Shown here: positions 30,313 to 61,938 of the stretch, piece by piece
Layout of the letters: the number at the start of each line of letters is the position of its first letter
Numbering within the stretch: position 1 is the stretch's first letter
DNA from: Olivibacter sitiensis DSM 17696
GTDB taxonomy: Bacteria > Bacteroidota > Bacteroidia > Sphingobacteriales > Sphingobacteriaceae
Length of the DNA: 62,291 nucleotides
Assembly (NCBI RefSeq): GCF_000427965.1
Contig: NZ_ATZA01000036.1
Span: 1-62,291 of the forward strand
Direction of reading: 5' to 3'
Notes under the pieces: model-generated
Seen by the model: only the letters and a program-made list of their open reading frames with translations
What the model was told of the DNA's origin: nothing
The model's database searches: none
Translations under genes and position numbers: made by a program

Positions 30313-31635
30313 ATGAAATTCAACAAACATACCCTGTTCGTATTAGGCGCTCTTGTCTTTATCCTAGGTTTAGGTTTCTTTGCATTTTCAGCTTTCAACG
30401 TCGAAAAAACCAAAAACAAAAAAGAATCCGCTGTACAAATAGAAGTGCCAAAGAAGGTATCCAAAGTGGAATTTGGTTTAATTGTCGATTCATTTTTGGT
30501 AGAGCAAAGAACCGTGCAACGCAATGAATTGTTGGGCAGCATGCTTGGTTCCGAATTCAATGCTCAGCAGATTGACGAAATAGCTAAGAAATCAAAGGAC
30601 GTTTACGACGTGCGCAGAATTGCCGCAGGCAAGCCATATAGTCTGTATTATGCCAATGACAGCAAAAGGCTAGCATATATGGTATATCAACCAAATGCGA
30701 TAGACTACGTCGTATATGACTTAAGGGATTCCATACAAGTATTTTCTGGCAAGAAAGAGGTGGAAACGAAGATTGAAACCTTATATGGTAGTATCAATGG
30801 ATCGCTGCATGAGGTCTTTAGCCAACAGGGAGCCGATCCAGCCTTGGCCTTCCAGCTCGCTCAAATCTATGGTGGCACCATAGATTTCTATCGCCTCAAC
30901 AGAGGTGATTGGTTCAAACTAGAATACGAAAGGCAATACGTTGAGGGAGAATCTATTGGACAAGGAAAGATCTTGGCTGCAGTTTTCGGACATAGAAACA
31001 AGGAGTTTGAAGCCTATTATTTCAAACCCGAAGGGGAGAAACAAGGCAGCTACTACGATGCCGAGGGAAACAGCTTACAACGTGCCTTCCTGAAAGCGCC
31101 GCTCAAATTTAGCCGCATTTCCTCCAGATTTTCACTGCGCAGGCTTCATCCCGTGCAGAAGACCTGGAAGGCACATCTGGGCACCGACTATGCCGCCCCA
31201 ACGGGAACACCTATCATCGCAACTGCCAATGGCGTCGTATCCGAATCGGGTTATAGTGGAGGCAATGGCAACTACGTGAAGATACAGCACGACAAAACCT
31301 ATGCTACCCAATATCTACATATGAGCAAGCGTGCCGTAAGTCGCGGTCAGCGTATCCGCCAAGGCCAAGTGATCGGCTATGTGGGAAGTACAGGCTTGGC
31401 TACGGGGCCTCATGTCTGCTACCGATTCTGGAAAAATGGCAAACAGGTAGACCCACTTCGTCAAAACTTCCAAAATGCCGGCATTCCGCTGGATAAAAAA
31501 TATCTCACTGCCTTTAAACAGACCATTGAAAACAAACAGCAACTCTTAGCACAAATACAGATAGGCGAGCAAGAAGACCATACACTGCTAAGTGCCAATG
31601 CCGAAGAAGAGGAAACAGCAGAGAAAAAGCTGTAA
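30313..31635 (+). CDS. M23-family peptidase (LytM/gluconase type) with non-standard metal motif
   Basis: A predicted periplasmic peptidoglycan endopeptidase or regulator of the lysostaphin/LytM class. The 440-residue protein has an N-terminal signal anchor (LFVLGALVFILGLGFFAF) and a central OapA/LysM-like region. The M23 domain runs from about residue 265, with the first metal motif in AHLGTDYAAP (about 286-295). The usual second motif HxH appears here as GPHVCYRFW (about 364-372), so the last zinc-ligand His is Cys. Whether it is active is open, since Cys can also bind zinc. It ends at a strong terminator. Confidence 0.9.
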   Translation: MKFNKHTLFVLGALVFILGLGFFAFSAFNVEKTKNKKESAVQIEVPKKVSKVEFGLIVDSFLVEQRTVQRNELLGSMLGSEFNAQQIDEIAKKSKDVYDVRRIAAGKPYSLYYANDSKRLAYMVYQPNAIDYVVYDLRDSIQVFSGKKEVETKIETLYGSINGSLHEVFSQQGADPALAFQLAQIYGGTIDFYRLNRGDWFKLEYERQYVEGESIGQGKILAAVFGHRNKEFEAYYFKPEGEKQGSYYDAEGNSLQRAFLKAPLKFSRISSRFSLRRLHPVQKTWKAHLGTDYAAPTGTPIIATANGVVSESGYSGGNGNYVKIQHDKTYATQYLHMSKRAVSRGQRIRQGQVIGYVGSTGLATGPHVCYRFWKNGKQVDPLRQNFQNAGIPLDKKYLTAFKQTIENKQQLLAQIQIGEQEDHTLLSANAEEEETAEKKL

Positions 31636-31765: not shown

Positions 31766-31888
31766 ATGTACATCTATCTAATATATACATGTACATCTAT
31801 AGGATACGGACATGTACATCTATAGAGTATATACATGTACATCTATAGGCCATAGACATGTACATGTATGAGCCTCAAAGATGTACAT
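31766..31888. repeat. six ATGTACAT palindromes at exact 23-bp spacing
   Basis: The octamer ATGTACAT begins at 31766, 31789, 31812, 31835, 31858 and 31881, every step exactly 23 bp. The four to six bases after each octamer are also conserved (CTATAG in units 2-4). The rest of the 23-bp unit is variable but purine-rich, with TATAC or GGAC before the next octamer. The first and last units extend to a 12-bp palindrome (AGATGTACATCT). It is not a CRISPR, since the unit is too short and has no spacer pattern. Confidence 0.9.
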
Positions 31889-32240: not shown

Positions 32241-33401
32241 CTAGAAAGTATAACCTGTCCAGGCAAATACTGAAGTATTGGCACCAGTCTGTGTAGCATT
32301 TCTAGTGATCGTTGCTCCTTGAGCCTTTACTAGCGCTTCATTAAACAATGATTCCGGTGAAAAAGTATAGGTAATGTTAGAGTTTGCATTTCCCGCACCA
32401 GCATTGTCAGTAAAGTCGATAATGTCTGTAAATTGAGCATTGGTTTCAATCAAAAGATTGGTGATTGTGGCAGTAGCACCCCTTCTAATCTTTACGATAT
32501 CCTGCATGATACCAGATGCAGTTGTAGAGCGGTTCACGATGGTCATACCGTCAATGGTAAAATTGGATTGTGCAACATCACTTGGATTTACGCCATCTAA
32601 GTTACCATCAGCTTCTATACCCCTAGGGTCTGCTTCGTTAGTGGTAAAACCTGCCTCCCAAATACCGTAAGAATTGGTCAGCGTACCAGTGTAACCTTGC
32701 GTAAAATCGAACATATCATCTTCAGAATTTACAACCAACAGGTTAGTCACGTTAACAGAACCACCAAAGAATTCAATGGCATCATCCGCTCCATCCTTGA
32801 TGAAAATGTTACTGATTTTCGTGCCATTTCCCACACCGTTCAGGGTCAAGCCATTGTGCTCAGCAGCATCATTGATGTTGGCACCAGAGTATTCAATGAT
32901 GATATAATCCAATTCACCAGAATTATCCGCAGCATCACTGCCTCCGTAAAGGATATTTGGACTGATCTCTGTTTGTCCAGTACTTGCAGAAGCTTCCGTA
33001 GGACGAGATAGCGGAGCATAGCCATTGATGATCAAACCGCCCCATGAACCAGATCTTTGCGTAGACGAAGTAAACTTGATCGGAGCAGATGCTGTTCCTT
33101 TTGCAATGATTTTTGCACCTCGCTCTACCAAGATAAATGCACTGGTTCCTTCTGTTGTGGCCGTAATGGTGGTACCAGCTGGGATAGTTAGTGTAGCTCC
33201 CTCTTTCACATATGTAGGTCCTGTAAGGTTAATTGTTGATCCACTTACAATTGCATCTCCGGTAATATTACCGTTGAAAACGGTCAATTCAGTTGCTCCC
33301 CCAATCGGGTTGTCATCGTCATCACTACAAGAAGTGAGTGCAAATACGAAAACCGCGAAAATGGTAAATAGTTTTGCTTTCATAAACAGTTTTGTTTTCA
33401 T
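32241..33401 (-). CDS. surface lipoprotein with parallel beta-helix repeats, partner of a TonB-dependent receptor
   Basis: Function unknown. The 386-residue protein has a lipoprotein signal with lipobox (FALTSC) and a run of acidic residues immediately after the Cys (CSDDDDN). This resembles the Bacteroidota surface-export signal for lipoproteins. The remainder is rich in G, N, T and I in short repeating strands (GSTINLTGPTYVKEGATLTI, GSVNVTNLLVVNSEDD), typical of a right-handed beta-helix. The start codon could also be six codons later, because the N-terminus is duplicated (MKTKLF-MKAKLF). It follows the TonB-dependent receptor by 74 bp with no promoter box between, so it is probably its co-transcribed surface partner. 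Confidence 0.75.
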   Translation of the reverse strand: MKTKLFMKAKLFTIFAVFVFALTSCSDDDDNPIGGATELTVFNGNITGDAIVSGSTINLTGPTYVKEGATLTIPAGTTITATTEGTSAFILVERGAKIIAKGTASAPIKFTSSTQRSGSWGGLIINGYAPLSRPTEASASTGQTEISPNILYGGSDAADNSGELDYIIIEYSGANINDAAEHNGLTLNGVGNGTKISNIFIKDGADDAIEFFGGSVNVTNLLVVNSEDDMFDFTQGYTGTLTNSYGIWEAGFTTNEADPRGIEADGNLDGVNPSDVAQSNFTIDGMTIVNRSTTASGIMQDIVKIRRGATATITNLLIETNAQFTDIIDFTDNAGAGNANSNITYTFSPESLFNEALVKAQGATITRNATQTGANTSVFAWTGYTF

Positions 33402-59229: not shown

Positions 59230-61938
59230 TTATTGGGCAAGAGCACTCAAACTTTCTTTCAGCATCTGTATCTTAGCTTCCGCATCCGCTTTCTTGTTCC
59301 GCTCGTTTTCCACTATCTCTGCCTTGGCATGCTGTACAAATCGCTCATTGTTCAGTTTTTTATCCACAGACGCCAAGAAACCTACCAAATAGGCTATCTC
59401 TTTCTCTATTCTTTCTTTTTCGGCCTCAATATCTATATTTTGAGCTATAGAAACAAAAAATTCGTCCCTTTCCACTATAAATGATACAGCAGCGGTTTGC
59501 TTTTCCTCCACCGCCTGCAGTTCGCTAACGTTACCAAGTTTTTTGATCAGTTCCTGATAAAGGCTATAGTCTACATCACCATTACGCTTTACCGCCAGTG
59601 GCAATGCCTCCTTGGGAGAGAGCTGCTTGCTGTTGCGTACATTACGTATTTCTGATATGATATGCTTGAGGATGGAAAAATCCTTGATCAACTTGGCATC
59701 CACATCGCCCGCCAAAGGATAGCGGGAAACTATGCAGCAATCCAGTTCGCTACGCGGGCCAAAAAGTTCATCATGCCACAGCTCTTCCGTGATGAAAGGC
59801 ATGAAAGGATGCACCAATGAAAGTATCTGTTCAAAGAAGTCCTTAGTGGCTTCAAATAGCTCCCTTGGAATAGGCTGTTGATAGGCTGGCTTCACCATTT
59901 CCAAATACCAGGAACAAAAATCGTCCCACACCAATTTATAAATACTCATTAGGGCATCAGAAAGGCGATATTCGGCAAAATGACCATCTATTTCGAGCAC
60001 AGCCTCATTGAAGCGATTGGCAAACCATGCTACCGCTTTCTTCTCTCCTTCATTGGCTTTGCTGTCCGTCACCTCCCATCCTTTCAACAAGCGGAAGGCA
60101 TTCCAAATCTTATTGGCAAAATTGCGCCCTTGCTCGCAATAGGAAACATCGAACATAAGGTCGTTGCCCGCTGGTGATGAAAGCAGCATGCCCACGCGGA
60201 CACCATCCGTACCATATTGCTTCATCAGTTCTATGGGATCTGGTGAGTTGCCCAATGATTTGGACATCTTGCGGCCGAGCTTATCGCGAACTATCCCTGT
60301 GAGATATACATTCTTAAATGGTGCCTGCCCCCTGAACTCGTGTCCGGAAATAATCATCCTTGCCACCCAGAAAAAGAGGATTTCTGGAGCCGTCACCAAA
60401 TCGTTGGTCGGATAGTAATAATTGATATCCGCCCCATCGGGATCCTTAAAGCCATCGAAAACGGAGATAGGCCACAGCCCCGAGCTGAACCAAGTATCCA
60501 ATACGTCCTCCTCTTGGCGTAGCCCATCGGCGCTTTTCGACTGACTCTCCAATTCCTTGCGGGCTTCGGCCTCCGTCTTGGCAACTACCCACTCCCCTTT
60601 GTCGTTGTACCAAGCGGGAATGCGCTGTCCCCACCACAGTTGACGTGATATGTTCCAATCCTTCACGTTCTCCATCCAATGGCGATAGGTATTGATAAAT
60701 TTGTCGGGTATCAGCTTCACCTCGCCATTGAGCACGTAGTCCAAAGCTGGTTTGGCCAACTGCTCCATCTTCAAGAACCACTGCATGGATAGCTTTGGCT
60801 CTATGGCGGCATCCGTGCGCTCCGAAAAGCCCACTTGCGACTTATAGTCTTCCACTTTCTCCAGTTGACCCGTTTCTTCCAAAAGTTTAGCTACTTTCTT
60901 CCGGGCAATGAATCGGTCCTCCCCTACCAAGATCTGTGCTTTTTCATTGAGGGTACCATCGTCGTTTAGGATGTCGATTACCTCCAACTGGTGCTTTTGC
61001 CCAAGCTCGTAGTCATTTAAGTCGTGAGCTGGTGTCACTTTCAGGCAACCGGTACCGAAATCCATTTCCACGTACTCGTCCTCGATGATCGGAATTACTC
61101 TGTTGACGAGTGGTACCAGCACCTTCTTACCCTTCAACCAGGCATATCGCTCGTCATTGGGATTGATACACACCGCCGTATCGGCCATGATGGTTTCCGG
61201 TCTTGTCGTCGCAATCACTATATAAGGTTGTGAGTTGCCAGTTGTGGGTTGTGAGTTGTCTGTTGTGGGTTGTGAGTTGTGGGTTGTGGGTTGTGAGTCG
61301 TCAGCCATCTGATGTCCGATGTCTGCTACCTCATACCTAACATAATATAGCTTCTGATTGACTTCCTTACGAATCACCTCTTCATCCGATACCGCCGTTT
61401 TTCCCTGTGGATCCCAGTTTACCATGCGGATACCCCGATAGATAAGTCCTTTCTTATAGTAATGGATGAAGGTATCTATTACGGCATCGCTCAAATCGGG
61501 CTCCATGGTGAAACGTGTACGATCCCAGTCGCAAGAAGCACCCAGTTTTTTTAACTGCTCCAGGATAATACCACCGTATTTTTCCTTCCATTCCCAAGCG
61601 TAGGTCAAAAATTCCGTTCGAGTGAGGTCTTTTTTACTGATACCTTTTTCCTTGAGCATCGCCACCACCTTGGCCTCCGTGGCAATGGACGCATGATCCG
61701 TACCCGGTACCCAGCAAGCATTTTTCCCTTGCATGCGAGCACGGCGAATCAGCACATCCTGAATGGTATTGTTCAACATATGCCCCATATGCAACACACC
61801 GGTCACATTGGGCGGGGGCATCACGATGGTATAAGGCTCTCGGTCATCAGGAACTGAACGGAAAAATTTCTTCTCCAGCCAATAGGCGTACCACTTATCT
61901 TCCGCTTCTTGCGGACTGTAGGTTTTTGCTATGCTCAT
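59230..61938 (-). CDS. valS: valyl-tRNA synthetase with a repeat insertion at the editing domain
   Basis: Charges tRNA-Val in the cytoplasm. The 902-residue class I synthetase has the HIGH motif as HMGHM (50-54) and KMSKS (about 555-559). The CP1 editing domain opens at [11 protein letters not shown], and a C-terminal coiled coil runs from about 830-900. Residues 215-238, just before ATTRPET, consist of three and a fraction copies of a SQPTT[HDG]N heptad. This is a low-complexity stretch not expected in this enzyme. The frame is intact across it, so the protein is probably functional. Confidence 0.97.
61225..61296 (-). repeat. in-frame 21-bp tandem repeat inside valS
   Basis: 72 nt made of three 21-nt units plus a partial fourth, each beginning TCACAACCCACAAC on the coding strand and differing in the last 7 nt. 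It encodes [21 protein letters not shown] and SQP. It sits between the strand YEVADI and the editing-domain motif. Confidence 0.85.

What the first reader, a model, noticed from the sequence alone, without database searches (positions are those of the whole stretch)
31766..31888. Six ATGTACAT palindromes phased at exactly 23 bp in a convergent intergenic gap
Octamer starts are 31766, 31789, 31812, 31835, 31858 and 31881, with no deviation from 23 bp. The sequence between octamers varies much more than the octamer and its CTAT flank, so both the motif and the spacing appear to be constrained. The array is bounded by two terminators of convergent genes, so it is not in a promoter. It could be an iteron-like protein-binding array, a nucleoid or segregation site, or a young variable tandem repeat.
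Basis: seen in the sequence. Interest (0 to 1): 0.75.

Follow-up and report, generated by a model that had tools for sequence, protein, structure and literature searches.

The report
Private DNA arrays of HU-like proteins
The six evenly spaced palindromes are one copy of a kind of DNA array that, in relatives of this bacterium, often sits beside genes for unusual HU-type DNA-packing proteins, mostly with a motif of its own for each gene, which suggests that these proteins bind chosen addresses on the chromosome.

Summary
In detail: six exact ATGTACAT palindromes at exactly 23 bp in a convergent gap. The own genome has one other array, five copies at 23 bp with unrelated spacers, directly upstream of an HU-HIG (PF18291/TIGR01201) gene. 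In own + 17 of 29 array-bearing genomes such an array lies on the 5' side of an HU-HIG gene; in the other 12 not all paralogues were inspected. The rule is wider: 65 of 120 HU-HIG genes have a phased array beside them, mostly at 22 bp and mostly with differing motifs, against 66 of 562 control genes. Units are dyad-symmetric beyond chance; some gene-side motifs recur as dispersed arrays. Best explanation: an HU-HIG homodimer recognises a ~22-bp palindromic site; arrays tile dimers about two helical turns apart, autoregulate the gene and mark other loci; the window array is a trans copy. Binding is inferred, not shown. Tandem-repeat, hairpin, iteron, CRISPR and viral readings fit worse. I found no description in the papers searched.

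The parts
31766..31888 (.). Array of six 23-bp units, each centred on the palindrome ATGTACAT
   Evidence: dyad profile over 11 units
31766..31773 (.). octamer 1 of 6
31789..31796 (.). octamer 2 of 6
31812..31819 (.). octamer 3 of 6
31835..31842 (.). octamer 4 of 6
31858..31865 (.). octamer 5 of 6
31881..31888 (.). octamer 6 of 6
30313..31635 (+). Left neighbour: M23 peptidase (PF01551), 3' end facing the array; the best homologues in 4 of 4 congeners have no phased array behind them in the stretch held
32241..33401 (-). Right neighbour: 386-aa protein without a Pfam match at E 1e-5, 3' end facing the array; TonB-dependent receptor gene upstream of it

Best explanation
The array is a set of tiled binding sites for one particular HU-family protein, an HU-HIG paralogue (PF18291/TIGR01201; gene at contig C67:121732-122109 of the same genome, L010 9430-9810 minus strand). 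A homodimer with the HU fold recognises a palindromic site of about 22 bp centred on ATGTACAT. Successive dimers sit about two helical turns apart, bend DNA in nearly the same direction and form a short cooperative filament. The paralogue's own gene carries a five-site array just upstream, which most likely autoregulates it. The window array is a second, trans site of the same protein, not at a promoter, and probably serves local chromosome structure (bridging or marking) rather than transcription of a neighbour. In related bacteria the same arrangement recurs with many motifs: an HU-HIG paralogue, its own phased palindrome array, and dispersed copies. Shown: array anatomy, recurrence beside HU-HIG genes, dyad symmetry, dispersed copies of some motifs. 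Inferred: binding, filament, autoregulation, architectural role.
For: 1) ORFs near arrays of 41 genomes were clustered: an HU-HIG cluster recurs in 6 genomes, 6 of 6 members directly beside an array and with the array on the 5' side; an HMM gives 9 genomes. With later calls, an ATGTACAT-type array lies upstream of an HU-HIG gene in own + 17 of 29 further array genomes. 2) Wider rule: a phased array within -400/+350 of 46 of 80 HU-HIG genes, shuffled mean 0.1, maximum 1 over 30 rounds; 19 of 40 in a second set; together 65 of 120 against 66 of 562 control genes from two genomes, Fisher p 2.4e-22; G451 9/15 v 38/293, G464 9/13 v 28/269. 2 of 2 HU-HIG genes that fell in a 400-kb sample have arrays at 49 and 75 bp. 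3) Pitch: of loci with hits 36 at 22 bp, the others mostly 20-24, although 15-30 was allowed. 4) Dyads: 12 of 65 unit consensuses hold a perfect 6+6 dyad, 1.1 expected; without TGTACA arrays 9 of 53 v 0.75. 5) Dispersed copies: a 15-mer of G464 HU L215's array recurs phased at L316:4072; an 11-mer of G451 HU L232's array at L298:17338. 6) Near-identical or orthologous proteins share motif: L214/L385, L265/L371; ATGTACAT labels cluster on the HU-HIG tree (1 of 500 shuffles as low). 7) Of 5 genomes of the genus only the own one has the arrays; the one other congener with an HU-HIG over the cut-off (G003) has the other paralogue: 49.6% identical to own C58, 32.7% to L010. 8) HU fold: profile hits solved HU; model pLDDT 86.3, pTM 0.64; Foldseek to HU, IHF, 4fmr.
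Against: No binding data. 55 of 120 HU-HIG genes show no array by the strict test, among them 4 of 5 examined in G447 and 5 of 6 in G454. G447, with 460 ATGTACAT pair-steps, showed no such array beside the 5 HU-HIG genes examined of 8 matches; G452 none beside 10 of 13. A histidine-kinase cluster also lies beside arrays in 4 of 6 genomes, on varying sides. The octamer is used by several HU-HIG clades (10 changes on the tree), so motif does not simply follow protein. Motif matching between dispersed and HU-side arrays is only moderately specific: in G464 4 of 18 arrays match own HU arrays (9 available) and 2 of 18 those of other genomes (32 available), but in G451 4 of 19 match own (7) and 9 of 19 other genomes' (34). 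17 of 65 HU-side arrays lie only downstream of the gene, which autoregulation does not explain. The other HU-HIG of the own genome (C58) has only an imperfect 3-unit repeat at 21 bp on its 3' side, and a two-unit pattern for it occurs nowhere else in the genome. Controls came from two genomes only and did not leave out the two HU-HIG genes of the sample.
Confidence: 0.74

Rival explanations
1. Young or drifting tandem repeat (VNTR) made by replication slippage, with no function.
For: 46-bp higher-order unit scores best; in other genomes adjacent spacer cores are alike in direct orientation (75% in G447, 65% elsewhere); the arrays are absent from congeners.
Against: Second array in the genome with the same octamer and pitch but unrelated spacers; 11 of 11 octamers intact while adjacent spacer cores are 56% (window) and 33% (second array) identical; similar pitch and dyads beside HU-HIG genes of other genomes.
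Confidence: 0.07
2. RNA or cruciform hairpin element: the array acts as a long fold-back structure (terminator, mRNA stabiliser, or HU target as a junction).
For: Some arrays are near-perfect inverted repeats (L046, L088). The own second array scores above its shuffles in the nested-spacer test (0.67 v 0.58). P. gingivalis HU PG0121 was studied on a 77-bp inverted repeat and bound loops and bulges best (PMC3969353, passages).
Against: As a rule spacers do not pair more than order/orientation shuffles (0.43 v 0.69 over 37 arrays of G447, 0.49 v 0.62 over 54 others; window array 0.44 v 0.58) and resemble each other more in direct than inverted sense. Exact pitch is not needed for folding.
Confidence: 0.07
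3. Sites of another DNA-binding protein (for example an unlinked repressor or recombinase); HU-HIG genes are merely among its targets.
For: No binding data exist; palindromes at two turns suit many dimeric regulators; a histidine-kinase cluster also adjoins arrays in 4 genomes.
Against: The linkage is to HU-HIG genes whatever the motif (65 of 120), and motifs differ between paralogues of one genome, which a single other protein cannot explain.
Confidence: 0.08
4. A spreading (selfish or mobile) repeat family which HU-HIG proteins evolved to coat or silence, in line with the proposal, recalled from Burroughs et al. 2017 and not readable here, that expanded Bacteroidetes HU proteins recognise invasive DNA. 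It shares the binding partner with the best explanation and competes only on purpose.
For: In G451 ATGTACAT arrays share flanks and array ends; G447 has 460 pair-steps; patchy distribution.
Against: The two own arrays share no spacer sequence; no transposase cluster recurs in 3 or more genomes near arrays; arrays lie beside the HU-HIG gene itself.
Confidence: 0.2
5. Plasmid- or phage-derived iterons or centromere left in the chromosome.
For: Iteron-like pitch of two helical turns; HU homologues on 10 plasmid and 9 phage records, all under 37% identity; 6 viral contigs hold the triple, two of them (L306, L310) as three units at 21 bp.
Against: No Rep or Par cluster recurs in 3 or more genomes near arrays; no HU-HIG in the stretches held of the 6 viral contigs, four of which are other repeats, mostly at 24 bp; window and second array lie among chromosomal genes.
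Confidence: 0.04

Closest known systems
HU/IHF nucleoid proteins (DNABII) and their sites
   Same: Same fold; dimer; IHF has specific sites and HU-DNA contacts span about 20 bp (recalled), close to the 22-bp pitch; E. coli HU regulates hupA and hupB (passage of PMC3969353)
   Different: Here each paralogue seems to have its own palindrome in phased arrays; up to 32 PF18291 matches in one genome, though PF18291 also rings on ordinary HU; HU is described as binding without sequence specificity (PMC5683647, start of abstract in the listing)
HU-HIG family (PF18291 / TIGR01201)
   Same: The gene beside the arrays is a member
   Different: Pfam describes the domain only; searches showed no described DNA target
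Rep-iteron origins and parS/ParB centromeres
   Same: Binding-protein gene next to an array of sites, pitch about two turns
   Different: No initiator, ParA or ParB found; many dispersed arrays per chromosome in some genomes; several motifs per genome
REP/BIME and other intergenic repeats; TAACTGA direct repeats of Beggiatoaceae and five Bacteroidetes (PMC4679880, abstract read)
   Same: Short dispersed intergenic repeats
   Different: Strict 21-23 bp phasing of dyads and linkage to a DNA-binding protein gene; TAACTGA is one heptamer, in the BOGUAY genome mostly just upstream of start codons
P. gingivalis HU PG0121 and the 77-bp inverted repeat of the capsule locus (PMC3969353, passages read)
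   Same: Bacteroidota HU protein encoded in the same locus as a long repeat, which it binds in preference to an unrelated 77-mer
   Different: Ordinary ~10-kDa HU; one inverted repeat studied for structured DNA, not a phased array

Membership tests
HU-HIG (PF18291/TIGR01201), the protein beside the arrays | Profile match over the curated cut-off | tested here: met
   6 of 6 proteins over the Pfam cut-off; 5 of 6 over the TIGR01201 cut-off, L045 66.8 v 68.6
HU-HIG (PF18291/TIGR01201), the protein beside the arrays | HU fold | tested here: met
   Profile to 5eka E 3.5e-9; model of L073 pLDDT 86.3, Foldseek to HU, IHF and 4fmr; own protein itself was not modelled
Rep-iteron origin | Adjacent replication initiator gene | tested here: not met
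   No such cluster in 3 or more of 41 genomes (ORFs of 90 aa or more); none among ten Pfam-scanned neighbours of the two own arrays
Rep-iteron origin | Direct repeats at about two helical turns | tested here: met
   21-23 bp
ParABS centromere | ParA/ParB next to the sites | tested here: not met
   As above; own second array lies between a seryl-tRNA synthetase gene and the HU-HIG gene
CRISPR or other spacer-guide array | Linked effector genes and unique captured spacers | tested here: not met
   No effector cluster recurs (PADLOC not run); spacers are 13-15 nt, and in G447 a few modules reused in both orientations
Neutral VNTR | Mutations spread evenly over the unit | tested here: not met
   Octamer 11/11 and +/-2 11/11 while other columns vary; arrays were found by the octamer, which favours this
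Classical operator | Sits at promoters of regulated genes | tested here: inconclusive
   Upstream only in 46, both sides in 2, downstream only in 17 of 65 HU-HIG genes; dispersed arrays are rare in divergent gaps: 2 of 20 v 30 of 100 gaps in G451, 5 of 48 ATGTACAT arrays
Sequence-specific nucleoid-associated protein with its sites | Demonstrated binding and effect on chromosome structure | not testable with these tools
   -

The most novel reading that the evidence does not exclude
Bacteroidota have turned the HU fold, usually seen as non-specific, into a large set of mutually orthogonal address-readers: up to dozens of HU-HIG paralogues per genome, each with a private 22-bp-phased palindrome array beside its own gene and scattered along the chromosome, where dimers polymerise and bring like arrays together, giving a multi-colour chromosome-folding or self-marking code.
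Probability: 0.4. Interest if true: 0.95.

Novelty: categorically new. Interest (0 to 1): 0.87.

Why it matters
I found no described DNA target for the HU-HIG proteins, which are numerous in some of these genomes. A cis-linked, easily recognised array beside about half of the members examined gives each such protein a predicted binding site, so specificity, autoregulation and chromosome folding become directly testable with short oligonucleotides, ChIP-seq and Hi-C. If true, the HU fold can evolve many orthogonal sequence specificities, a natural series for learning its recognition code. It would also explain a class of intergenic repeats that, in one MAG at least (G447), lie at many contig ends.

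Tried and rejected
Paper search for the octamer itself: 423 papers hold the letters, 30 listed, none on such arrays by title. Searches listed no description of HU-HIG arrays; 10.1080/15384101.2017.1315494 (HU superfamily, recalled) is not held. PMC5771137 has no passage on 22/23-bp or tandem repeats.

Mismatch scan of the own genome: 41 against 36 in control. Phylum sample of 395 genomes: only the own genome has the triple.

Hairpin reading: folds looked striking but the spacer test went against it as a rule. The specificity test with two-unit 8-mers was too noisy (G451 4 of 8 own v 10 of 32 other; G464 5 of 7 v 10 of 33); the stricter test supports pairing in G464 and not clearly in G451.

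Mistakes found on the way: loci returned by the genome search are not turned to the match, so several 'upstream' stretches printed are downstream; of 19 rows added, 11 were dropped before the tree of 94 rows. One search stopped on an error after its main counts; the rest was rerun. I had first read as showing no other family beside arrays; the recount shows a histidine-kinase cluster beside arrays in 4 of 6 genomes. The filter that skips two-letter motifs misses AT-only repeats such as one that seems to lie upstream of L246, so 65 of 120 may be low. In one search, 3 of 25 arrays lacked a neighbour and were dropped, of 87 arrays at 22/23 bp, 28 lacked a neighbour and 11 lay inside an ORF.

Full report
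WHAT IS THERE. The window holds six exact ATGTACAT octamers at exactly 23-bp steps, 31766-31888, in a 605-bp convergent gap between an M23 peptidase gene and a gene for a 386-aa protein without a Pfam match, behind which lies a TonB-dependent receptor gene. By a simple detector nothing else in the window is phased (pitch 15-30, six letters in three copies) except a G-rich repeat at 61226-61304. The own genome has exactly one more array: five octamers at 23 bp at C67:122200-122299. The two arrays share the octamer, the pitch and the immediate dyad flanks, not the spacers. Over the 11 units the octamer and positions +/-2 are invariant, and positions out to about +/-7 show dyad-related preferences. 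That is what a palindromic protein site of about 22 bp would leave.

RELATIVES. None of four congeners has an array, nor a repeat behind its best homologue of the M23 gene (0 of 4), and 394 other genomes of a phylum sample lack the triple. Among these, steps of 22 bp (225), 23 (57) and 21 (30) dominate; many come from one MAG (G447), and most of the 22/23-bp ones bear Bacteroidota titles (exceptions such as L070, L109 and L124 are titled Bacilli or Moraxellaceae). So octamer and pitch are a recurrent combination, patchily distributed.

THE LINKED GENE. I listed ORFs around the arrays and clustered them over 41 genomes. An HU-HIG cluster recurs in six genomes, and all six members are the gene directly beside an array, with the array on the 5' side. 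An HMM raises this to nine genomes. The recount also shows a histidine-kinase cluster beside arrays in four of its six genomes, on varying sides; kinases are a large family, and I did not follow this. In the own genome the second array lies 90 bp upstream of the HU-HIG gene and downstream of a seryl-tRNA synthetase gene. The proteins match PF18291 over the cut-off in 6 of 6 cases and TIGR01201 in 5 of 6, hit solved HU structures over residues 30-120, and a model of the L073 relative has the HU fold with added N-terminal strands. Of 29 further array-bearing genomes (30 asked for, L027 not held), 17 show an ATGTACAT-type array upstream of an HU-HIG gene (in G455 one of the three units is degenerate, in G460 the HU gene is frameshifted). 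In the other 12 only some or none of the paralogues were inspected; in G452 10 of 13 were, without success. All 29 have PF18291 matches, but that model also rings on ordinary HU in 9 of 14 control genomes. Within the genus only the own genome has the arrays; the one congener with an HU-HIG over the cut-off has the other paralogue (49.6% identity to own C58, 32.7% to the array-linked one).

THE RULE IS WIDER THAN THIS OCTAMER. Reading the surroundings of HU-HIG genes in other genomes showed phased palindromes of other sequence. The detector (six or more identical letters in three copies at one pitch, 15-30 bp allowed) finds an array within -400/+350 of 46 of 80 HU-HIG genes from 11 genomes, against a mean of 0.1 and a maximum of 1 in 30 rounds of dinucleotide shuffles; 36 loci have pitch 22. 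In 40 further HU-HIG genes fetched afterwards it finds 19. Control genes from 400-kb samples of two of the genomes give 66 of 562, the two HU-HIG genes of the sample not left out; HU-HIG 65 of 120, Fisher p 2.4e-22, and the contrast holds inside each of the two genomes. The two HU-HIG genes that lay in the G464 sample both have an array, 49 and 75 bp away. Unit consensuses are dyad-symmetric beyond composition: 12 perfect 6+6 dyads among 65, 1.1 expected. Motifs mostly differ between paralogues of one genome; two pairs of close relatives in different species share theirs (L214/L385; L265/L371).

DISPERSED ARRAYS. A 400-kb sample of G451 (2.4 Mb) holds 27 phased arrays by the seven-letter detector, of pitch 22 (14), 21 (10), 23 (1), 15 (1) and 18 (1), in ten or more motif families. 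The G464 sample holds 19 (22: 11, 21: 3, 23: 3, 24: 1, 18: 1). Some repeat the motif of an HU-HIG gene of the same genome, most clearly a 15-mer (HU L215, place L316:4072) and an 11-mer (HU L232, place L298:17338). A count of such matches favours the own genome in G464 (4 of 18 arrays match one of 9 own HU arrays, 2 of 18 one of 32 others) but not in G451 (4 of 19 against 7 own, 9 of 19 against 34 others), perhaps because short AT-rich cores and shared motifs match by chance. Dispersed arrays are rare in divergent gaps (2 of 20 against 30 of 100 gaps in G451; 5 of 48 ATGTACAT arrays with both neighbours known, many from one genome), so they do not look like ordinary operators. The window array lies between two 3' ends.

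HOW IT MOST LIKELY WORKS. A homodimer of HU fold reads a two-fold symmetric site. Proteins of this family kink DNA at two places about 9 bp apart (recalled, and stated in a passage of PMC3969353), which fits an 8-10-bp invariant core with weaker flanks. Sites at 21-23 bp are about two helical turns apart, so neighbouring dimers sit on nearly one face and could polymerise. An array upstream of the protein's own gene suggests feedback control. Elsewhere the array would be a nucleation or contact point. Binding, cooperativity and function are inferred. The idea that expanded Bacteroidetes HU proteins deal with invasive DNA is recalled from a 2017 paper that is not held; it remains possible that the arrays are spreading elements that these proteins coat.

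AGAINST. 55 of 120 HU-HIG genes have no array by the test. G447 has 460 ATGTACAT pair-steps, but the five HU-HIG genes looked at, of eight matches, have no such array. The octamer occurs with several HU-HIG clades: on a tree of 94 domains the label needs 10 changes (mean of shuffles 13.3; 1 of 500 as low). 17 of 65 HU-side arrays are only on the 3' side. Several array families in G451 have no HU partner among those inspected. The own second array, unlike most, pairs its spacers slightly better than shuffles (0.67 v 0.58).

NOVELTY. I found no description in the searched library; most subscription papers and all preprints are missing from it. The rival known kinds each fail on a tested feature, within the limits given in the membership table. 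I therefore rate the arrangement, an HU-HIG paralogue plus its own phased palindrome array plus dispersed copies, as a new kind, while the single biochemical step proposed, an HU-fold dimer bending DNA at a preferred site, is of a known sort.

Noticed in passing
window 61226-61304: G-rich tandem repeat GGTTGTG / 21-bp unit, the only other phased repeat of the window by the detector.
   Followed up: no
L025 151-224, L059 1413-1484, L067 187-258, L084 939-1009, L098 5365-5436, L111 6866-6939, L114 1344-1410: Records titled Clostridia, Lachnospiraceae, Anaerotignum or Tenericutes carry three or four ATGTACAT octamers at roughly 25-29 and 34-38 bp (L098 in the other order; L084 with a fourth at 21), in several with a GACAAA-like stretch between; perhaps a promoter with operators of an unrelated regulator.
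   Followed up: no
L062 3444-3663 and L079 2528-2747: Two loci of one Bacteroidales MAG with seven octamers in mirrored spacing (57,30,38,11,19,57 and 57,19,11,38,30,57), as if one element lies in both orientations.
   Followed up: no
G447 (CAMAMB MAG), e.g. L012, L039, L106, L115: 460 ATGTACAT pair-steps in 2.3 Mb; spacers are a few modules used in both orientations; many of the contigs listed end in arrays.
   Followed up: partly
L046 6933-6986, L088 5318-5391: ATGTACAT arrays that are also near-perfect long inverted repeats.
   Followed up: partly
L040, L090, L096, L103: Members of a histidine-kinase cluster lie directly beside ATGTACAT repeats in four genomes, array on the 3' side in three and on the 5' side in one.
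   Followed up: no
G451 sample L303 6392, L304 11433 and 18041, L293 10755, L292 15317: Dispersed arrays of an AAACGAAGAAAGAATTT type at 21 bp; a similar stretch lies upstream of the HU-HIG genes L235 and L240.
   Followed up: partly
own genome C58:3050-3083 (L147, L393) and G003 L142 near 1919: The other HU-HIG paralogue of the genus has short imperfect repeats on its 3' side, with different motifs in the two species.
   Followed up: partly
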